In this document: piece after piece, positions 9,661-24,285 of the stretch
How positions within the stretch are numbered: the stretch's first letter is position 1
Layout: every line of letters begins with the position of its first letter
Source of the DNA: Acanthamoeba sp. SK_2022b
Lineage: Eukaryota > Discosea > Longamoebia > Acanthamoebidae
Direction: 5' to 3'
DNA length: 64,000 bases
Assembly (NCBI GenBank): GCA_027943245.1
Contig: JANDJZ010000073.1
Location: forward strand, 62,001 to 126,000
Translations under genes and position numbers: made by a program
The notes under the pieces: generated by a model
What the model was told of the DNA's origin: nothing
The model's database searches: none
The model's input: the letters and a program-made list of their open reading frames with translations, nothing else

Positions 9661-12600
9661 TTACAGGAGGAAAGGATGCTGTAGCGCAGCGTCAAACGTC
9701 AGCCGATCTTGAGGCTCAGGCGCGAGCAGGCCACGCGCCAAGTCAAGTCCCTCATCTGAGCACCAGGGCGATGGCTCCCACTTTTGCTGGCCTGGGACCC
9801 CATAAAACCGTAGGCCGAGCTTCTTGCGCTCATCCGCCCTGAATCGGACAGAGTGAGACAACTCGTTGGGCGAGGGAGCTCGAAGGGAGGACGCGCATAC
9901 GTGAGTTGTGGGATGCGGGAGGTCATATGAGCCCGCAGTTGGCCCGCAGGTGCGTGACACAACATATTGGCGAGGTAGCGCCCTGCTGCGTCTGACTGAG
10001 GGCAGGTCCACAACATCTGCGTAGAATAGAATAGCAACACACGCACAGGCGATTAAAGCAGCCGCTATGCGCCCCACAAGAGAAAGGTGGCCTGTTGTGG
10101 AGGTCAGTACCACTTGGAGGAGCATGATGCCAACGCCCCAGGCGTCGATCGAGTGGCTCGTGGGAAATTGCTCATAACGGCAGTGAGGGGTGATCTCCGG
10201 AGGAGTGAAGCCCGGCGTGCAATGGTCCTCAGCGTGCCAGTGCTCTCGATCAGTAAACATGGCGTGATCAAAGTCGATCAACACCACACGCTGTTGTGAA
10301 GAACAGAGTCATATCTCATCGCCACACAGCAATCTGTGCAGCATTCATCGTCATTGTACCATGTTGTCTGTCGTGTCTGTGACCAGCACATTGTCCAGCT
10401 AGGCGTGGAGAGAAGACATAAGTCTGGTCGCCACTTCGCAAAATTGCGTTCAAAAGGAGATAAGGATACCTTGAGGTCGTGGTGTAGGACTTCTTGTTGT
10501 TGGCACCTGCGGAGAGCCTATGGACAGGAATCGCACAACTATTGAGCTAAACAGGACAGAACATTCACATAGGCTACTCAGGAGAGTACCTCGATGAGCT
10601 GACGAAAGTAGTTTTGTATTAACGTTGGAGAATTGACCGAGAGGATCGGGAAGGTGGATCCCTCGATGTACTCCAACACCAGCACTCTCTGCTTCGAGTG
10701 CACGTCGCTGGCGTCATCGAGAAGCTGCACCACCCCTGGGCAGCCCTTGAGTCGCGTAAGGGCCTCGCATTCGATGTCCAAGCGATAGAAATGGGCGCTG
10801 TCCCAGTATTTGAGCACCACCCGCTCGCCTGTGGCGGTATTCCGTCCCATACGGATGAGGGTTCCTGCGCCCTGTACATTCCATTGGTGAGCTAAAAGGA
10901 GCTACCCGTTCTAGGCCAAGCAGAGGCGTACCTCGCTCAAAATGTTGGGCAAAACCAGATACGTATTCTCGCCGCTGCGGCTCTTCAGGCACGAGAGCCC
11001 CACAGTTTCCACGTTGGCCGTGACCGGGCCGGGTGCCTCGTCTCGCCTGACCTCTGTGGCAGATCTGTAGTCGTTGGACACCTTTGGGTGCCTGCGGTTG
11101 TCGCATCGGCCGTAGATCTCTCCACCGCGCCCTGCTACTCGCCGGCCGCCTGTTCCTCCAGACCCACTTCGTCCTGCTGCTCCTCGGTTGCGTGCCGCTG
11201 ATGCGCCGGCGGCTACGCTCCCTGCCGGCGATAGTTCTCGGCCACCGCGCCCTGCTGGAGATGATCCGCGGCCGCTGCGTCTCGCTGGAGATCTTCCCTC
11301 GCCAGGCGATGGCTCTTGTGCTTGCTTGCTGAGCGAGGCCGACCGAGAGTAGAGATTGGCCCGCTCCAAGAATTGGCTGGTGCTCTGACGAGCCAATTCG
11401 GCGGTGTGGATGCCGTGTAGCCGGAGGTACCACAGGGCACGGAAGATTAAGAGCAGCTGGTCCGCTGTCCAAAGAAACGCATACTCATCGCCATCAGTTG
11501 GCAGATAAGCACACAACAATTCCACAAACTGGGAGGAACGAACGCTTATCAGCCGAGTATTGCAGCAGCAAGTGAGGCACGTAGCACCGGCTTGCGCCCT
11601 CGACGGTGAGTTCCATGCAGTACAGAAGGAACCTACTCCCTGCCCAGTAGATACCAAAAGAGAGAGGATGCTCGATGCCCAGGTCGGCCTGCTTCTTGCA
11701 GATCAGGTGCATCTCGTAGCAAAGCATGTTGCTGCAAAGGGCGAAGAGATAGCTTGTCACCAAAGAGAAAAGCGAGAGAGGTCTGTGGCACGCACATGCC
11801 TCGAACATCCGTAGAATCTCGCTTGTGCTCAATAGCCACAAGCCCCAGGTAAACTCTTTCGGTGAGGTGGAGGTTGCTCACACTGCGAGTGCAGCCCTGA
11901 ATGACTTCCGCTGTGTAGCCGACAATGCCATCAGGCTGGCATCGCTTACTGCGAGTGGCCAGTTGCTGGCGTGTCCGCTTGGAGGTCTTTGCGGGGAACT
12001 CGTCATCCGTAAGTGTACCACGCCTGGTTAGTAGGCAAAGCATGGGTCAGCGCAAGAACCTTGCCCATCATACATGCGAATGGGAAGATACGTACCAAGC
12101 TCGGGCGAGCTGATCTGAACATCCGCGCATGAAGCTCGAGTAAAGCCAGATGTAGAGCTCCATTTCATAGGTGCCCTCCCCGCTTGCAGGGTGGGACTCG
12201 AGCAGACTTGGGTGGCGTTCCGTCAGGAGCGGCAGCATGTCCTCCACGCAAGAGAGGAAGCTGCTGCTAGTGGTATGGAAGTGCAGCTCCCGAGGGAACT
12301 CACCAGCAATGCTGTAGTCGCAGTCCCCATAGGTAACCTTGAAATGGTCCTACACGCCACCAACTGAACAGGCTTAGCAAGAGATAAGCTCGCAGTCAAG
12401 AGGGCCATACCATCGAGGGCACCTTCGTGAAGCATTCAAGAGATTTCTTGTGTTGGGCTGCGAATCGAAAGTGGCGATACTTGAACACGCTGTGTACCCA
12501 CCACATAAGCTGCGGGTCGTGCATCTCACACACTGGAATTTCAATCGCTCCTGGCACCGCAATCTTTGGGAGCTTAATCCCCATAGAGCCAAGCTCTTCG

Positions 12601-13022: not shown

Positions 13023-16000
13023 CTACTGATCAATTTTGCTGACGAGACCGGGCGGCAGGAAGTACGACCCATTCCGCTCGAGCTTGCGTCGCGGCGTCGT
13101 GACCGTCGCGATGTCGCCGGCCGACTGGGTCTTCTTCAAGTCGTCCTTGTCCTTCCTCCCACTGCCGCCTTGGCTGCCGCGCGACGCCGAGCTCGACAGG
13201 GCGCCGTCGCTGTCTCCGCCGTCGCTGTCGTCGCCGTCGTCCTTGAACACGAGCGTGCGCTTGGCGCCAAGCGACTTGCCTTCCTCCTTCTTGGCCTTGC
13301 CTTCGGCCTTGCCGCTTCGCGTCGACCGCTTGGTGAAGTCCATCAGCTTGCGGCCCATGCTCTTCTTGACCGCCGTAGCCCCGTCCTTCTCGCTGCTCCC
13401 CCTGAGGCCGCTGCCGCTCTTCTTCTCCTTCTTCTCCTTCTTCTCCTTCTTTTCCTTCTTCTCCTTTTTGTTGTCCTTCTTGCCCGACGTGACCGTGCCC
13501 AGCGCCCTGTCGCTGCTCTGGCGCTTGGCCTCCTTGGCCTTGTGGCTCACGTGCTGCTCGTCGTCGTGGTGATGGTGGCGGCGATGCGTGACGACGACGT
13601 CGTTGTGGGTGTCCTCCTCCACGTCGGACTTGGCGGAAGAGCCTCCCTTCTTGCCCTTGCGCCGCTCCATGCGCTCCATCCACCGCTTGGCCCGGTCCAG
13701 CAGCTCCTCTTTCATCTTCTCCTTGGTCTGGTTGGCGTTGAGCACGATGCCCCACACATCCATCAGGTATCGACCCTCCTTCTGCACGAGTGAACACAGC
13801 TTAGCCAAACTACCAACGCACGCACGTTGTGTGTGCATACCTTCATGTCACGGAAGAAGGCCTGGGCGTCGTCGTCGCTCATGTTGCCCTCGCGCTTGGC
13901 GATGTTGATCAGCGTGGCAAAGACGTCGTTGGCCATGCACACGTCGCCGCAGATGTAAAAGTACGTGTTGGCATCGCGCAGGAGCTGCCACACATGCCGC
14001 CCTGTACCGAGAGTGCGCGTGTGAGTGGTTGCGCTTTGTCGGTTGTGTGTTCTGTGTGCGGGTGTGGGTGTACCATCGTTGGCGATGAGGTGTTGGACAT
14101 ATTGCTTCGTGGCCTGATCGCGCGAGAAGGCGGCGTTGAGCTTGCTCAGCACGCCGTCGTTCTCGGCCTCGGTCAGCTCCGTGCGGTAGATGAAGTCGGC
14201 CTCGCGCTTGCGGCAGCCAAAGTAGAGGAACGCCTCGCTACCCGCGGCCTGATCTCCGCTGCGGCTGACGGTCGCCTTCGTGGCCGTGTTGGTCGGCGCG
14301 CCACCGTTGCTGCTGCCGCCGCGCGAGGCCAACCCGCTGTCGTGGTCGTTCAAATCCTGCTCGACATCGGCCTCGTCCTCGCAGGAGCCCACGGCCGTCG
14401 ACGGGTCGAGACGGCGCGGCGACTGGAGTTTCTTGTCGACGATCGCGCGACGTGGCGTGAAGCCGCCGTTGCCGTTCGGCGTGCCGCTGCCGTGCGTCGC
14501 GGGAGATGCGACGGGGGCCAGCTTGATGGGTGTGATGTGCCGAGGCGATTTGGCGCCCGCGCGCAGCTGCTCGAGCGCATGTCGGCGCTCGTGGATGAAG
14601 GCGTGCAGCGGGGCCACGCCGGTGCCGGCGCCCACCATGATGAGGTTCTTGGCGACGAACGACGGCGGCAGATGGAACGTCGATTTGCGCACGTACAGGC
14701 GCACGAGGTCGCCCGCCTTGAGCGTGCGCAGGTAGGACGAGCACACGCCGTAGTAGACCTTGCCATTGGGCAGGCGATCCTCCACCAGCGCCACCGTCAG
14801 CGACAATCGCCCCCTGTACAGACGCATGAGTCGTAAGCCATTGCGTGAGTGGGGCATTCGAGCCTTTCGGGAGAGCGCATGGGGAGGAGAGTGGGTGAAG
14901 GGTGGAGAGGAACGGGGGTGGCTGGCTTACCGGTGGGCCGATGGGGAGGAGGATATGGAGTAGAGACGCACGCGCTGGCGGTTGACGACCTCGCACAGGC
15001 GGTCAAAGGTGATGCTCACGGAGGGAAACTTGTCGAGGATCTGGAGCACGTTGGTGTACTCGCTGCGAATGGCCGCCTCCATGGCCGGCTGGGTCTCGCG
15101 GCTCTGCAGCGCGCTGTGCATCTTGCGCAGACAGCGCCGCTCGCTCTTCTCGTTGGCGTTGGCGCGGAGCACCCTGAACAGCTCGCTCAGTTGCGCGCCG
15201 CGCACGGTGAGATCCAACTCCTGGCTGAGGGCTCGTCGCACGGTGCAGGGCGTCTCGAAGGGCACAGAGACGGGTCCCTTCTCAAACGTGAACCAGGCGT
15301 CGGGGTCGACGTTGAGCCGCTTGGCCAGGCGCTCCACGAGATCCGGATCGTTGTGGGGCATCACCGCCACGTGATCGCCGCACTCGTACTTGAGCTCGTC
15401 GCCACCGTCCACATTCTTATGCATTCCGGTTAGTTTTGTTTCATTACTTAAATGGTGTAAATTCTGAAGAATAAATAATAATAAAAATAATATTAAAAAA
15501 TGGCGCATACCTTAACGTCAAGTTCGATGTGACGGGCAGAGCGGTCGGAGATGGGGTTGTGCAGTTCGTTGTTGCACAGGACCTTGACGCTCTTCCAATC
15601 GCCGTCGGCGGTCTTCCTGTCGCCCAGCGCATCGGGCCCGGCCGGCGCCGGAAGCCACTTGATGTTGAGCCGGCTGGCCGTCGTGCGCACGGTGTTGATC
15701 TCCGCGCTCGTGACGGGCCCCAGCGACTGCAGCGACTGCGGCGCGAGGTCGTAGTGCTTGGCCAACGCAATGCTGAACAGTCGCGTCCATTCCTGTGTTT
15801 CGTGCGTTGTTGTGCGTTAAGCGCCGAGAATGCGAGGTGTCGATGCGTGTTTGGGGGAGGCAAGACCTGGAAGGGCTCCTCGTGGCCCGTGAGCTCATCG
15901 CCGAGACCGCACGGAATGAGGCGATGGGCTCCGCTCTCGAACAGCCGCTGGTCGCAGTACTTGCCAAAGGCGCAGAAGTTCTCGTAGACGTGCGACCCGA

Positions 16001-16730
16001 AGCCGAACACGGCAAAGGAGACGCCCGCCAGCGCGTGGCCGCCGTGTTCGATGGCGAGCCAGGCGTTGAAGCGCACGGCGTTGGTGGGCGGCTCGCCCTG
16101 GCCGAACGTCGACGTGATGATGACGATCGTGCTCGTCTGCTGGTCGTCGTGCTTGGTGAGCTTCTTCGTATCGAACGAGTCGAGCGCCATCACGTCGACC
16201 ACGAAATCCGGCGACAGCTTGCGCGCTAGTACATGCGCAAAGTTCTCTGCACCGGGGAGAGGGGCTCAGAGGTCAGTAGTGGAGAGGCGACGGGGAGAGA
16301 CGGAAGATGGAATATGGAGCCACAGCGTGCGATACCAGAGTTGCCGGTCTCGGAGCCGAAGAGGATCGTGACCTCCCGGTTCTTGGGCTTGGGCTTGCGC
16401 GCCATGTTCTGGCCGCTGCTGTTGCACGCCTCTTCGAGCCGCTTCCGGTCAATCGAAAAGTAGTCCCACGCGTTGGGCTGCACGACGCGACACAAGAACA
16501 GGTGTGAGAAAGACGGGCGAGGCCCAACGGGGCGTGCGGTGAGTGCGGGCGTACCTGGTAGAAGTAGTTGGGCTTGGCATCAAAGTGCCGCATCTGGTGA
16601 TGCCACACGGGGCACAGCGACGAGCTGATAGGCGGCACGATCCACGACCACAGCGCCGGACACTCTCGCCCCGCCTCTGTGTGGCAGGCACGCCGCGAAC
16701 GGGGAGTGAGCATATGCTGCGTGCGTTGTG

Positions 16731-16801
<71 letters not shown>

Positions 16802-16829
16802 TGGTGTGTGTGTGTGTGTGCGTGGTGGT

Positions 16830-16902
<73 letters not shown>

Positions 16903-17448
16903 TGTATGCGTGCATGTGTGCGTGGTGTGGGGGGCGCACCTTTTTCTCGCTTGTCGTGCATGAGAAACTGCTTGGAGGCCGTGTGATGGTCGACCATGGT
17001 GACGCCGGCCTTCTGGTACGAGTGAAGGACGGCCACGTTGAGTTCGAGCATGGCCTTGTCCTGCCACAGGCTCGTGTTGATCTTCTGGTCGAGCCCCATC
17101 TTGTCGGCGATCTTGGGCAGCACATTGTAGCGCTCCGCCAAGTTGCGGCCTATCTCGGTGTTCATGTACCAGCCATTGCTGTGTCGACACACGCAACACA
17201 CACAAGCTGGTGAGCACTGACAACCAATGATTAGGGGGAGAACGAATTGGGTCCGGGCTGACAACGTACAACGGACAGGCCGTGTAGGAGACTCCGCCTA
17301 CCTCGAAGCGGAAGTCGCCAATGACCGGCACCGCGTACCATTTGAGCCCCAACTCCGCAAACCACTCGTACTGCGGATGAACCAACGGCACCTGTGTGAT
17401 TTTCCGGCGACAGAGCAAATGGATCATCAGTTGCTGTGAGTAGTGTGT

Positions 17449-17491
<43 letters not shown>

Positions 17492-17891
17492 CGTGTCATG
17501 TGGCGTGTGCGGGCCATACCTCGAGGCAGAAGGTCTTGGGAATCTGGAAGACGTGGGGCGACCGACCGGGGAACTGGATGACGATGGGCAGGATGTCAAA
17601 GGCCGTGCGGGGGCTGCCGCCCTCCCAGCCGAGGTCCATGATCTCGCGCGTGAGCTCCTCGTTGGCCGGATCGCCCAGGATGGACCCGTCGGGCTGACGG
17701 TACCCGGCGTACCTGCGCAAATGAGACAACAACGCGTGTGAGTGCCGCGCTCAAGCAAGCAAGCAAGCAAACAAAGCCGAGCGGCGTCGGCGGGGAACTG
17801 TACCGAATAAGCTGCGAGTTCCATATGCGGATGCCGATCTCGTTGGCCGGATGCTTGGCGGCAAAGATCGTCATGGTCGACGTAACCTGCG

Positions 17892-17960
<69 letters not shown>

Positions 17961-19027
17961 CCACGTCATCAGAGTTTAACATTGAACAACGCTAATGAGA
18001 TAGGGGCGGGAGGAGGTGCTACATACCTTGCCGGCGTTGGTGGCGATCTCCAAGTGTTCGAGGATGCTCACAAAGAGCTGCTCGGGTGAGTTGAGGTGTC
18101 GCATGTCGCGTACGATCATGTTCTTCCAGTTGATCCGCCCGATGCACTTGGACGAGTTACGCCATGCCACCTTAAGAGAAAAAGCAACAAGAACGTGTGA
18201 TGAGGTCTTTGGTTGCTTCGTGGTCATGATCATGATCAATCGAAGATTACCTTGGCTCCGTAGGAGATCTCCTCGTAGGTCTGCTGGTAGGTGCCGGTGG
18301 CCATGATCTCGTTCCTAATTTCGGTCAATCGGTTCTTGTAGTCCTCCTCGGACTTGCCCAGCTCGGTCTTGAGCAGGTCCTGGTACTCGACCACTTCCTT
18401 CCACTGCAGCACGCCCCGCCAATCATTATTTGCTTCAAAACCAACCCACAGCAGTTCTTCTACTTGATGTTATTTATATTCTTTATTATAATTTAATTTT
18501 AAATAATTGCCGAACGGGGGAGGACGGGAGGTCGTACCATTTTGTCGAACTCAACCGCCGGGCGAGCCATGGAGGCGGCGACTTTGTTGTAGACGAGCAC
18601 CCAGGCCTTTTCGATCTCGGGCGTCCAGTTCTTGGACATGCCCTTGAGCGTCTCGACCAGCACCTCGCCCACCTTCACGTATTGTTCGGGCTTGACCGAC
18701 CGCGCGGCGTGACGGAAGGCCGACTCGTCGATCGCCGAATGGAGGCTTCTGCCAGCCTGCACCAGAGAGAGAGAGAGAGAAGTGAGACTAGGCATCGCAT
18801 GGGCTGGTAGAGTGGCACACGGCCTCGATAGACGTGTACCCGGTGAGTACTCGAGTAGCTCTTCTTCCCACTCTGGTGTCCGACTTCCGAGCGGGGGGAA
18901 GCCGGCTTGCGCGAGGGATGGGACTGCTCCCGTTCAGCACGGGATAGACCAGACGGCTAAGAGTAGGAGAGGGAGAGGGGTACACTCAATATGGAGCGTG
19001 CATGGCCCAGAGAGAGAGAGGGATGGT

Positions 19028-19114
<87 letters not shown>

Positions 19115-21526
19115 GATGCGGGAAGAGGTACCTTCTTGGTGGGCGTGGACGGCTGCTTCTGCTTCTGCTTCACGAACATGCCTCCGCACTGGTCGACGAT
19201 GAGTTCTACCATGTCGACAAAATGAGAGACCTGCACAGACCACCCGGGGAGGAGCTTGTGAGTCGTTGCGTGCGCACAAGTAGTAGTAGAAGAAGGAAAA
19301 TGAAGGGGTTGACCTGTCTCTCCATGTCGGTGCTGCCAAACACGGAGAGGAGCTCCGGGTAGCGCGACAGGAGCAGAAGGTAGAAGCTCTCGCCGACGTT
19401 GAGCCTGTCGTGGTTGGCCAGGATCTCTTGCCACGACTGCGCCACCAGTTCGCTGTGGACGCTCAGCAGGCTCCGATCCTTGGCGGCTTCCTGTTCGTGA
19501 CGATCGCCGGCCACGAGAGTTGTGTGGCGTTTAGCGAGACTCGAGCGACAGGAAGAGAGGAGGAGGGGAGTCACGCACCTTCTGAAGGTTGATTATGTGA
19601 GCGTAGAATTTCCTGAACGCGTCGTGGGTTTCCTTCATCTGAAGGGACTGATTGTAGATCGGAAGCGCCTGGCGCACCACATCCGCCCACGCGCTGAAGC
19701 TCTGTGTGTGTGTGTGTGTGTGTGTGTTACAGTGCCGACAACTGAGGTAGGCTTCACAGAGGATTGAGAGAGGCACGAGGCAACGCACCGATCGATAATA
19801 CGTGGCCGGAAGGTTGGCGAACGAGTTGTGGACGCCGATGTTCTTGATCTGGAGCAGGGTATCGGGGGAGAGAAAGCCCTTGGGGTCGAGCGAGTTGATC
19901 GCCTGACAGAGTCGAGCAAGCGTATCATTGAGAAAAGTTCCGTGGAACAGGAGTCTACCGCGCTGACGGGCAGAGCGCGAACGTGGGCCAACCAAGATGA
20001 GAGGGCGCGCACCATGTCCATGGCATCGAAGAATTCATCGCCGATCTTGCTCAGATCGAGCGGCTTGAGGATTTCATTGAGCTCGGGCTCCAGCTTGAGC
20101 AGGCGATGCACGTACATCTCGCCGAACTTGTCCCTGAACTCGATGATCCGCACCCACGCGTCCTGCATAGGCACGCCAATTGCGCATGCAACTGTGAGAC
20201 GAATGCGCGGGTGCAAGGCTCGAAAAGGGATTGAGCCTTGAGGGCGCTGGGCATCGGCGTACCCGCAGCGCGATCACATGGCTCTTTGTGGGCGCCCAGG
20301 ACAGCTCGGCGAAGAGGTCCTTGCCCGTGGGCAGGTCGCCCGAGCTCCACAGCAGACTCGAGGAAGACGTGTGCACGGGACAGCCTGCGAGGGAGAGAAC
20401 GGTGTCAGCACTGCTTGTGGCTGAGCGTGCCGGCGAGCGTGGGGTGAGCGCTGCGCGTGAGGGACGCTGGATGGTCACCCTTGAGCATACGCGGCGTGAT
20501 AGAGTCGGAGCTGATTTCGCTGTCCCGGCGCGGGGAGGCGCCGGTCTTGACATCAACGCGTGAGCTGCTGAGCGAGACGTGCACGGTGTTCCGTTTGGCG
20601 GCCTCGAGCAGCGCAGTGTGGTCGGTGAGCCGCGTGAGGGTGATCTCGAGCTGGTTGCCGTTGCGTGAGGTGTGTGTCGACTGGTGCACGGACTCGCCGC
20701 TGCGCAGGAACGTGTCCAGCAGCAGGCCCGTCTCCGCCACCATCTCCCACTTGAGCTGCTCGCTCTCGCTCTCGCTGGCACTGGTGGCATCGCTTTCGCT
20801 CTCGCTCTCGCTCTCGTCTTGTCGTGCTGCGGAGGAGAGAGCCCGCTTGGTTTCCAGCGTTGCTAGGTGGGCGGTGGTTGGGAGGGATACCTCGCTTTTT
20901 CCGTCGCAGGTAGAAGAAGGCGCTCTCGTTCTTGGCCTCCTTGACGATGACGTTGAGGGTGTGGTGCTTTTCTGTGGACCGCAGTTTACTTGACGAGCGG
21001 CAGAAGAGAGGCGGAGAGAAGGGAAACAGAACGTTGCTGTCAGCCCCACAGTGCATCCTCTACAGGATATTGAACTTCATAAAGCCAAATTGGCGTCGTG
21101 GCCTCGTCAACACGAACAAAAAGAATGTGCATAAATGCACAAATAAAGAGAAACTGCAGAAAGAATGAAATAATTAAAAGGGAAAAAGTTGCAGCACGAG
21201 CGGGGAGGCGAGTACATGACGGAAGAGAGCTCCCAGCGCGGGCGGGTGGTGTTGAAGGCCACGACGGGCTGCTCGTCCTCCTTGTCTATGGGCATCTCCT
21301 TACCGTCCGAAAGGAGCCAGAGGCCGTAGGTGCGCTTCTTCGAGGGGCCGATTTGCATCGGCTGGTGCTGGCTGCTCGCTCCTCCTGCAAGGCCCTTCCC
21401 CATCCCAGGGTTGATTGAACTGGGAGGTGCTGGTGCTCCATTTTGCTGATTAGGGCCGAGTAGGAGCTCTATTTCGATGCCGATGTGGTACTTCACGTCG
21501 TCCGTTGAGGTTTTCTTTGACGACAT
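13023..21526 (-). CDS. Globin-globin-nitric oxide synthase fusion with full reductase and basic tail
   Basis: Roughly 2,000 residues from over 20 exons, in one frame across every junction checked. Order: N-terminal domain of unknown type and an acidic Ser/Glu run (21526-20470); globin 1 (about 20165-19600; [17 protein letters not shown]-helix [16 protein letters not shown]); globin 2 (about 19500-18545; [27 protein letters not shown]-helix [18 protein letters not shown]); NOS oxygenase (18405-16440) with the heme-thiolate Cys in [13 protein letters not shown], the substrate Glu in GWYMNTEIG, and WSWIVPP; linker and FMN domain ([33 protein letters not shown]); FAD (RLYSISSSP); NADPH ([28 protein letters not shown]); and a Lys/Glu-rich tail (13800-13023). 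NOS makes NO and citrulline from arginine. An alternative start lies at 21592. Several introns carry GT/CA tracts. Confidence 0.9.
16733..16901. repeat. Compound (GT)n tracts in an NOS intron
   Basis: GT runs at 16733-16797 and 16830-16901 with short imperfect GT between them, in the intron after the exon ending HDKREK of the oxygenase domain. Confidence 0.95.
17450..17490. repeat. (GT)n microsatellite in an NOS intron
   Basis: About 20 GT units in the intron between the exons ending IPKTFCLEV and starting [10 protein letters not shown]. Confidence 0.95.
17893..17959. repeat. (GT)n microsatellite in an NOS intron
   Basis: About 33 GT units in the intron just upstream (on the coding strand) of the exon [18 protein letters not shown]. 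Confidence 0.95.
19029..19114. repeat. (AC)n-(AG)n microsatellite in an NOS intron
   Basis: An AC run of about 68 bp is followed by an AG run of about 17 bp, inside the intron that splits the second globin domain. Confidence 0.95.
19702..19728. repeat. Short (GT)n in an NOS intron
   Basis: About 13 GT units in the intron that splits the first globin domain after ATYYRS. Confidence 0.9.
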
Positions 21527-23200: not shown

Positions 23201-23251
23201 AATAACTCCTTGAAGTTTACAGTTTATCGGCAAGTTTGCACAACCCCAACG

Positions 23252-24285
23252 ATGGAAGCAGCCACACCAGGTACTCTGGCCGCACAACGTGTCTCTATCG
23301 TGAGTCACTTATCGTGTCATCGGCAGAGTTGAGGTATTGGGAGTGCAGAGGTCGCGCGCAGCCTCTCGTGTACCTTCTGGAGGACTCTAGTCAGCCCTAC
23401 ACCCTGCACGAGCACGAGCTTCCAATGGGCGAGCGTGCAGAAGAGGCCTGGAACCATTGGCAAACCGTCAAGGCCGACAAGAGCCTTTCCGGTGGAAGAG
23501 TCTCCCTCCTTCAAGCTCTTCAATTTAGAACGCGCTGACTGTGTTGAGCGCAGGACCCTTTGGGCAGCTGCCTTTGCTGCGTTGGGGCGAGACAAGCTTG
23601 GCCCAGACCTACGCCATCGCTCGCTATTTGGGCCGCAAGCTGGGGTACCACCCGGCCAGCAGGTACAAGCCTTGGTCATTCCAAGATTCGCAGTTATCCT
23701 CTAACGATAAAAATGTAGCCTTGAGGAAGAGGCCCTATGTGATATGTACCTCTCGGCTGCCTTCCAGGACCTGCAACTCCCTTTGACTCAACTCTTCTAT
23801 ACCCCCGCCGGCAACTCTGAATGTAACGTTGCCGCCGCTGTTGAGGTAGAGCCACCACCCCTTGAGCTTCATTAAGTATCATCTTTACCATTTCTTGCAG
23901 GGCGTCAAAGGCACTGTCGACGGTGTGCTGAAGAGGTTTGAGGACGAGCTCAAGGACAAGCATTACCTTCTCGGTGACAAACCCACCGTACCTGACTTCT
24001 TCCTCTTCGAGGCCTTGGACCTCTATGCCTCAGGTTTTGGCGCAGCTCACCTGAATGACAAATTCCCCGCCTTGGTACACATCATCGCATGATGTAGCTT
24101 GGCGTAGCGTGTCCGCTTACACCACCCATGTGCGTTGTGTTTAGTCTGCGTTCCACGAGAGAGTGAGCGCCAGGGATAGGATCAAGGCCTACCTTGCCAG
24201 CGGCAAACGGCGTGCGCGCTTCACCGCCAGCCCTGCGGAGGAGAAGGTCTTGCAGGCCATGCACGAACTGACCAAACAGCAGTGA
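23252..24285 (+). CDS. Glutathione S-transferase, sigma/mu-like
   Basis: A cytosolic GST that conjugates glutathione to electrophiles. A six-codon first exon (MEAATP) is spliced to ELRYWECRGRAQPLVYLLED, the first beta-alpha unit of the thioredoxin fold, where the catalytic Tyr is expected. The glutathione-binding segment follows: GQLPLLRWGETSLAQTYAIA, then RYLGRKLGYHPAS. The helical C-terminal domain includes LEEEALCDMYLSAAFQDL, LLGDKPTVPDFFLFEALDL (the N-capping/hydrophobic-staple region) and SAFHERVSARDRIKAYLASG, ending with KQQ and TGA at 24283. Total is about 220 residues, typical of the superfamily. Five introns break the frame. The class is tentative. It sits 123 bp upstream of the acetyltransferase gene on the same strand. 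Confidence 0.9.

What the first reader, a model, noticed from the sequence alone, without database searches (positions are those of the whole stretch)
18545..20165. Two globin domains fused in front of a complete nitric oxide synthase
Seen: the exons between 20165 and 18545 encode two globin-like folds, each with a candidate proximal histidine (IGVHNSF and FRHAARS), and each splice join I checked (for example K|EAAKDRS and M|WKEVVEY) stays in phase into the NOS oxygenase domain. Known: animal NOS has no globin; one cyanobacterial NOS (Synechococcus PCC 7335) has one N-terminal globin and releases much of its product as nitrate. A tandem pair in a eukaryote is not something I know described. 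Inference: the globins may scavenge or oxidise NO at source, sense O2 or NO, or feed electrons.
Basis: partly seen in the sequence, partly recalled or inferred. Interest (0 to 1): 0.93.

Follow-up and report, generated by a model that had tools for sequence, protein, structure and literature searches.

The report
Amoeba nitric oxide synthase carrying globins
An amoeba gene makes one large enzyme that joins two globin modules to a nitric oxide synthase, the same plan recently solved in a cyanobacterium, so the enzyme can probably make nitric oxide and also turn it into nitrate; the amoeba version looks like an unusually deep branch of that family.

Summary
The tandem is real. On the minus strand, 21526-13023 reads as one 25-exon gene (1960 aa, no internal stop): N-terminal region of unknown fold, globin 1 (aa 294-422), globin 2 (423-626), NOS oxygenase, flavodoxin, FAD/NADPH reductase, long basic tail. 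Globin 2 looks heme-competent (Pfam E 5.7e-9; B10 Tyr, CD1 Phe, E7 His, F8 His). The order pseudoglobin-globin-oxygenase-flavodoxin-FNR is that of cyanobacterial syNOS (PMC12922734, 2026), and N-terminal globin-NOS is already in print for diatoms (PMC8728061). New here: a member in an amoeba (18S resembles Acanthamoeba, from recall); no hit row listed is named Acanthamoeba. Its oxygenase lies outside the bacterial (mostly cyanobacterial) globin-NOS clade (AU p 0.0185, group chosen after seeing the tree), on the side of a 100/99 branch where 21 of 24 other rows carry a globin module; 0 of 25 rows tested on the other side do. Likely mechanism: NO synthase coupled to NO dioxygenase. New member of a known kind.

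The parts
20263..21526 (-). Exons 1-4 (21526-21216, 20988-20891, 20826-20479, 20384-20263), aa 1-293: N-terminal region of unknown fold. It sits where syNOS has its Ca2+-sensitive C2 domain and linker
   Evidence: Gene model; GC3 74-88%; no match to a C2 profile of 35 bacterial rows by HMM or hhalign
19579..20162 (-). Exons 5-7 (20162-20013, 19902-19789, 19701-19579), aa 294-422: first globin, homologue of the syNOS pseudoglobin
   Evidence: 21.9 bits vs 4.2 best of 500 shuffles; hhalign E 1.3e-5 to the first-globin and 7.8e-5 to the second-globin profile; phmmer collinear with 9q05; no Pfam match
19828..19830 (-).
   Evidence: Aligns one residue before F8; F8 column is Asn 369; residues checked
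18538..19490 (-). Exons 8-11 (19490-19314, 19230-19132, 18956-18840, 18756-18538), aa 423-626: second globin, heme-competent by sequence
   Evidence: Pfam PF00042 E 5.7e-9 without exon 10; 41.7 bits vs 4.0 best of 500 shuffles; B10 Y, CD1 F, E7 H, F8 H
18840..18956 (-). Exon 10, 39 aa in the EF loop of the second globin; doubtful, may be intron
   Evidence: No codon periodicity (GC1/2/3 62/64/67) and skipping it keeps the frame open
18709..18711 (-). F8 proximal His codon of the second globin (aa 569, FRHAARS)
   Evidence: His in 40 of 44 other rows; aligned to the His of ARRHVKYGVK in PDB 3wfw
19222..19224 (-). E7 distal His codon of the second globin (aa 484, VSHFVDM)
   Evidence: His in 41 of 44 other rows; residue checked
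16336..18403 (-). Exons 12-19: NOS oxygenase (Pfam match aa 624-982); heme-thiolate Cys codon 18146-18144 in SSKCIGR
   Evidence: Pfam PF02898 E 2.6e-153; the 7 NOS hits found in the genome all lie here
15511..16477 (-). Exons 19-21: flavodoxin (FMN) domain, aa 1016-1154, and start of FNR
   Evidence: Pfam PF00258 E 4.1e-31
13841..15792 (-). Exons 21-24: FAD- and NADPH-binding reductase, aa 1221-1681, with a low-complexity insert in exon 23
   Evidence: Pfam PF00667 E 1.7e-41, PF00175 E 1.2e-9
13023..13781 (-). Exon 25: end of the reductase and a long Lys-rich C-terminal tail
   Evidence: Translation

Best explanation
This is a syNOS-type bifunctional enzyme. The oxygenase makes NO from L-arginine with electrons from FMN. 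The second globin, reduced by the same NADPH/FAD module, binds O2 and converts part of the NO to nitrate before it leaves (NO dioxygenase). The first globin is a pseudoglobin without heme that wedges between globin 2 and the oxygenase dimer and takes the place of the zinc hook of animal NOS. Shown here: an open, in-phase reading of one gene, domain order, homology of both globins to the syNOS pair, heme-site residues of globin 2, the NOS oxygenase. Inferred from syNOS: electron route, NO dioxygenase activity, spacer role. Not known: what switches it, since no C2 domain or calmodulin site was demonstrated.
For: Collinear alignment with syNOS (PDB 9q05) in three stretches, aa 285-492, 570-1487 and 1601-1744, E 1.6e-246. 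Both globin profiles beat all 500 shuffles. Globin 2 keeps B10 Tyr, CD1 Phe, E7 His and F8 His, which 41, 43, 41 and 40 of the 44 other rows share. In syNOS the isolated FNR reduces the globin (PMC12922734 section 16) and the globin oxidises NO to nitrate (passages). For the spacer role: no Cys lies between aa 497 and the heme Cys 686, so there is no zinc Cys pair ahead of the oxygenase, and two relatives, P0056 and P0062, keep the pseudoglobin (143 and 148 bits) with no second globin detected. GTP cyclohydrolase I and PTPS homologues for a biopterin route are in the assembly. A relative, P0055, is an assembled transcript with both globins and the NOS (name, domains).
Against: No RNA, protein or activity data. 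The C2 domain that regulates syNOS was not found. Intron 11, between globin 2 and oxygenase, holds an AATAAA, the only one of the 24 introns that does, so a globin-only transcript is conceivable. In three eukaryotic-looking relatives (P0121, P0129, P0186) and in P0015 globin 2 has no His at F8, so NO dioxygenase activity is not universal in the family. The assembly contains bacterial DNA, so some biopterin-gene hits may not be the amoeba's.
Confidence: 0.7

Rival explanations
1. Both globins bind heme: a tandem in which one acts as NO dioxygenase and the other as O2/NO sensor or electron relay.
For: A His lies in the F helix of globin 1, and anchoring on the downstream Pro (His to Pro 7 residues, as in globin 2) would put it at F8 (sequence). 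The relative P0009 has His at F8 of globin 1 in the alignment.
Against: Three alignments put the His at F7; CD1 is Leu, E7 is Glu; none of the other 44 rows has His at F8 of globin 1 (F 32, L 7, Y 3, M 1, gap 1); syNOS pseudoglobin has no heme. P0009's register is not firm: one search aligned that stretch elsewhere, its globin 1 scores only 3.6 bits with the pseudoglobin profile, and its model was poor there.
Confidence: 0.2
2. The globins store O2 or sense O2/NO and gate NOS rather than oxidising NO.
For: Electron supply to globin 2 has not been shown in this protein; the reductase insert and basic tail could change the geometry (sequence).
Against: B10 Tyr and E7 His fit NO dioxygenases (recalled), and the homologous syNOS globin oxidises NO.
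Confidence: 0.15
3. Two neighbouring genes (a globin gene and a NOS gene) that the reader and I joined by false splicing.
For: No transcript; AATAAA in intron 11.
Against: The intron is 134 nt, in the range of the others (59-263 nt); the join is phase 0 and collinear with single-chain relatives, including a 1468-aa solved structure.
Confidence: 0.04
4. Recent acquisition of a cyanobacterial syNOS gene.
For: Same architecture; among the named full-length hits with a globin most are cyanobacterial.
Against: 24 introns; the oxygenase falls outside the bacterial globin-NOS clade in three trees, and holding it inside costs 34 log units, p 0.0185 (the group was chosen after the tree was seen, which weakens the p).
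Confidence: 0.07

Closest known systems
Synechococcus PCC 7335 NOS (syNOS; PDB 9q05/9q06)
   Same: Order pseudoglobin, globin, oxygenase, flavodoxin, FNR; no zinc Cys pair before the oxygenase; globin-2 heme residues
   Different: Amoeba copy has 24 introns, no detectable C2 domain, a basic C-terminal tail, an FNR insert, an EF-loop insert in globin 2 (length depends on exon 10) and a more diverged globin 1; oxygenase outside the bacterial globin-NOS clade
Diatom globin-NOS (PmNOS, ScNOS, in print) and the tandem rows P0129, P0121, P0055 found here
   Same: Eukaryotic N-terminal globin-NOS
   Different: P0129, P0121, P0055, P0186, P0128 and P0160 form a separate clade; one clade of the query plus all eight such rows was rejected, p 0.005; P0121 and P0129 have no F8 His in globin 2. 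PmNOS and ScNOS themselves were not compared
Green-algal NOS-globin (Klebsormidium KnNOS2 type)
   Same: NOS fused to a globin
   Different: Globin at the C-terminus, with an ankyrin motif (PMC8728061, passages)
Physarum polycephalum NOS
   Same: NOS with oxygenase and reductase domains in an amoebozoan
   Different: Described as animal-type; the word globin does not occur in the text held (PMC4758236, passages); not compared by sequence here
Bacterial flavohemoglobin (Hmp)
   Same: Globin reduced by an FNR in one chain, NO to nitrate
   Different: No NOS or flavodoxin; single globin

Membership tests
Nitric oxide synthase | NOS oxygenase domain with heme-thiolate Cys | tested here: met
   PF02898 E 2.6e-153; SSKCIGR with Cys 686
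Nitric oxide synthase | Flavodoxin + FAD/NADPH reductase in cis (full-length form) | tested here: met
   PF00258, PF00667, PF00175
syNOS-type globin-NOS | Pseudoglobin directly before globin | tested here: met
syNOS-type globin-NOS | Heme globin with CD1 Phe and F8 His directly before the oxygenase | tested here: met
   (residues; heme itself not tested)
syNOS-type globin-NOS | N-terminal C2 domain | tested here: inconclusive
   No profile match, but the same profile finds no C2 in P0057, P0055 or P0009 either, so the test is weak
syNOS-type globin-NOS | Oxygenase phylogeny with the globin-bearing group | tested here: met
   The 19 rows with a second globin and 2 more with a pseudoglobin only lie with the query on one side of a 100/99 branch, 0 of 25 tested rows on the other; 3 rows on the globin side show no globin (P0048, P0049, P0160). 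The tree is unrooted
syNOS-type globin-NOS | NO dioxygenase activity | not testable with these tools
   Needs protein
Heme globin (first globin) | F8 His and CD1 Phe | tested here: not met
   Asn at the F8 column (His at F7), Leu at CD1; register uncertain by one residue
Animal-type NOS | Calmodulin helix between oxygenase and flavodoxin | not tested
   The linker was only read by eye; no obvious calmodulin helix

The most novel reading that the evidence does not exclude
The globin pair was fused to NOS once, early. The amoeba gene is the first-diverging surviving branch (if the root lies on the globin-free bacterial side), so the fusion would be older than the cyanobacterial and algal enzymes. 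If the root instead lies among the globin-bearing forms, animal NOS descends from a globin-bearing ancestor and lost the globins.
Probability: 0.35. Interest if true: 0.75.

Novelty: new member of a known kind. Interest (0 to 1): 0.5.

Why it matters
It places the syNOS plan, known from cyanobacteria and a few algae, in what looks like a non-photosynthetic amoeba and on a deep branch, which makes the origin of fused NOS and the use of NO-to-nitrate conversion outside photosynthetic nitrogen assimilation directly testable. It also gives a eukaryotic protein in which the pseudoglobin has drifted far, useful for asking what that module does.

Tried and rejected
Rejected: recent cyanobacterial transfer (AU p 0.0185); heme in globin 1 as the default reading; two separate genes. 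Also rejected by AU: query with all eight eukaryotic globin rows, p 0.005, and query with P0009, P0048, bacterial and myxobacterial-type NOS, p 0.007. Not decided: C2 domain; query with P0009 and P0048 as one clade (p 0.093) and query with animals (p 0.107), neither rejected. All groups tested were chosen after seeing the trees, so the p values are only a guide.

Led nowhere: an AlphaFold job on the two-globin stretch of P0009 gave mean pLDDT 55, under 50 through most of globin 1, so no fold search was run. A Balamuthia 18S pattern found nothing. Literature searches showed no paper on a globin-NOS in an amoeba in the rows listed (20 of 33, 1 of 1, 1 of 1, 0 of 0, 17 of 17, 15 of 91, 10 of 83); only an open-licence library was searched. 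P0009's globin 1 is not found by the pseudoglobin profile (3.6 bits, below the best shuffle), and one search aligned it differently. P0048, near P0009 in the trees, fills its 3115-base contig, so its N-terminus is unknown. In one search seven of the 16 bacterial NOS rows that I had chosen were left out because my motif missed them; 51 rows remained. In one search I had put P0133 among the eukaryotic globin rows; it lies among the animals there and was dropped. Rows grouped as 'cyano_bact' are bacterial or unnamed, not all cyanobacteria (P0125 is Spirosoma, P0056 a deltaproteobacterial MAG, several have no name).
Full report
Observation. The minus strand 21526-13023 reads as one gene of 25 exons and 1960 codons without internal stop. 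I placed the splice sites by eye with GT-AG as a condition. 24 of 25 exons have 74-92% GC at third positions in the frame used; exon 10 alone does not (67%, with 62 and 64 at positions one and two) and may be intron.

What the two segments are. The second scores as Globin in Pfam (E 1.9e-8 with exon 10; 5.7e-9 without). The first has no Pfam match. Profiles built from the N-termini of 35 bacterial globin-NOS rows give 21.9 bits for the first (aa 287-351) and 41.7 for the second (438-619); the best of 500 shuffles reach 4.2 and 4.0. Of 15 other NOS tested in the same call, 7 score above the shuffles with the second profile (12.3-72.8 bits: P0009, P0057, P0055, P0121, P0129, P0186, P0128) and 8 do not; with the first profile 6 do (P0057 119.0, P0055 72.5, P0186 58.7, P0129 51.8, P0121 26.4, P0128 6.3) and 9 do not, P0009 (3.6) among them. 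hhalign of the first segment gives E 1.3e-5 over 60 columns to the first-globin profile and 7.8e-5 over 123 columns to the second.

Relation to syNOS. phmmer against the PDB gives Synechococcus NOS (9q05) first, E 1.6e-246, in three collinear stretches, the first of which (26.6 bits) covers the pseudoglobin and the start of the globin. The 2026 cryo-EM paper (PMC12922734; passages, sections 10 and 16) describes C2 (1-134), heme-less pseudoglobin (179-339), globin with NO dioxygenase activity (340-473), oxygenase, flavodoxin and FNR. The amoeba protein has the same order from the pseudoglobin on. I could not show a C2 domain, but the same profile finds none in P0057, P0055 or P0009 either.

Heme sites. 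Over 46 aligned rows, 44 besides the query and P0009, globin 2 has Tyr at B10 in 41, Phe at CD1 in 43, His at E7 in 41 and His at F8 in 40; the query has all four. PDB 3wfw supports the F8 register. In globin 1 the F8 column is Phe 32, Leu 7, Tyr 3, Met 1 and one gap; the query has Asn there with His one residue earlier, Leu at CD1 and Glu at E7; P0009 has His at F8 and Tyr at CD1, but its register is not firm. The first globin of the query is therefore probably a pseudoglobin; an error of one residue in the register cannot be excluded. The site names rest on my assignment on row P0001 and on recall of globin numbering.

Relatives. One search lists 120 of 739 proteins: the best rows are bacterial, mostly cyanobacterial where named, with P0055 and P0057 from EukProt further down. 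One search lists 120 of 268 and adds Prorocentrum cordatum (P0121), an MMETSP transcript (P0129), P0186 and Spirosoma pollinicola (P0125). The genome-contig scan confirmed 14 of 77 stretches: ten Nostocales by name (order recalled), two Spirosoma-type entries among them counted apart, a myxobacterium and two actinobacteria; in detail, nine cyanobacterial records, two Spirosoma, Paraliomyxa, Streptantibioticus and Actinacidiphila. (proteins of 0.55-1.75 times 676 aa; 120 of 736 listed) gives almost only single-domain bacterial NOS, 49-59% identical to the query over about half of it.

Trees. In three oxygenase trees the query does not fall inside the bacterial globin-NOS clade, without bacterial single-domain NOS, it stands nearest to the stem of the animal and myxobacterial-type NOS. 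With bacterial NOS included (51 rows) a 100/99 branch separates animals, myxobacterial-type and bacterial NOS (26 rows) from the query and 24 others; the query attaches next to that branch. Profiles on those rows: of the 24 others on the query's side 19 have a second globin, 2 (P0056, P0062) a pseudoglobin only, 3 (P0048, P0049, P0160) neither, of which P0048 and P0049 begin 65 and 33 residues before the WRN motif; of 25 rows tested on the other side none scores above 1.6 bits (2flq, known here as oxygenase only, was not tested). AU tests: query inside the bacterial globin-NOS rows plus P0057, p 0.0185; with all eight eukaryotic rows, p 0.005; with P0009, P0048, bacterial and myxobacterial-type rows, p 0.007; with P0009 and P0048, p 0.093; with animals, p 0.107. 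Groups were chosen after the trees were seen, the tree is unrooted and several branches are long.

Organism. The assembly (44.9 Mb, 1129 contigs) holds an rDNA copy that Rfam calls eukaryotic SSU; its sequence reads like Acanthamoeba to me, from recall only. The seven NOS exon hits lie at this locus. The one other Pfam Globin hit scored in the genome is a flavohemoglobin ORF on a contig of enterobacterial look, so the assembly contains bacterial DNA; the NOS gene, with 24 introns, is not of that kind.

Mechanism. By homology: arginine to NO at the oxygenase, NO plus O2 to nitrate at globin 2, electrons from one reductase. In syNOS the isolated FNR reduces the globin at about the rate seen in the full enzyme. 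Globin 1 is inferred to be the spacer between globin 2 and the oxygenase dimer; the absence of Cys between aa 497 and 685 and relatives with a pseudoglobin but no second globin fit that. Regulation is unknown.

Literature. Chimeric globin-NOS in diatoms and C-terminal NOS-globin in green algae are in print (PMC8728061, PMC4648414, passages; PMC6104048, passages; PMC7554344, passages). Searches for amoeba or Acanthamoeba plus globin plus NOS returned one unrelated review and nothing; Acanthamoeba plus NOS plus genome gave 91 papers, 15 listed, none about such a gene by title and abstract start except the Physarum genome, where NOS is described as animal-type (PMC4758236, passages).

Verdict. 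Real, mostly as described; the layout is known; the host and the deep position are new. New member of a known kind, interest 0.5.

Noticed in passing
P0015 (alignment): A bacterial globin-NOS carries an EF-hand pair inserted in the EF loop of its second globin, the same place as the amoeba insert, and has no His at F8 there: a possible Ca2+ switch.
   Followed up: partly
P0056, P0062: NOS with a clear pseudoglobin (143 and 148 bits) but no second globin detected, so the pseudoglobin can stand alone.
   Followed up: partly
P0121, P0129, P0186: Second globin has Leu, Trp or Cys at F8 in three eukaryotic-looking relatives, so it may be heme-free there.
   Followed up: partly
P0186: Globin-NOS listed with a villin-headpiece domain (PF02209).
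   Followed up: no
window 18956-18840: Exon 10 lacks codon periodicity; cassette exon or intron.
   Followed up: partly
window 18537-18404: AT-rich intron 11 with AATAAA, the only one among 24 introns; possible early polyadenylation giving a globin-only product.
   Followed up: no
window 13781-13023: Very Lys-rich C-terminal tail (KKEKKEKK repeats) after the reductase.
   Followed up: no
window introns around 19080, 17920, 17480, 16870, 16780: Long (CA)n/(GT)n runs in several introns of this gene.
   Followed up: no
L025 (G000 contig C730): Contig with a 412-aa flavohemoglobin ORF of enterobacterial look: bacterial DNA in the assembly.
   Followed up: partly
window 9661-10901 (minus strand) and 23206-24092 (plus strand): ORFs that by eye look like pieces of a protein kinase and a glutathione S-transferase.
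   Followed up: no
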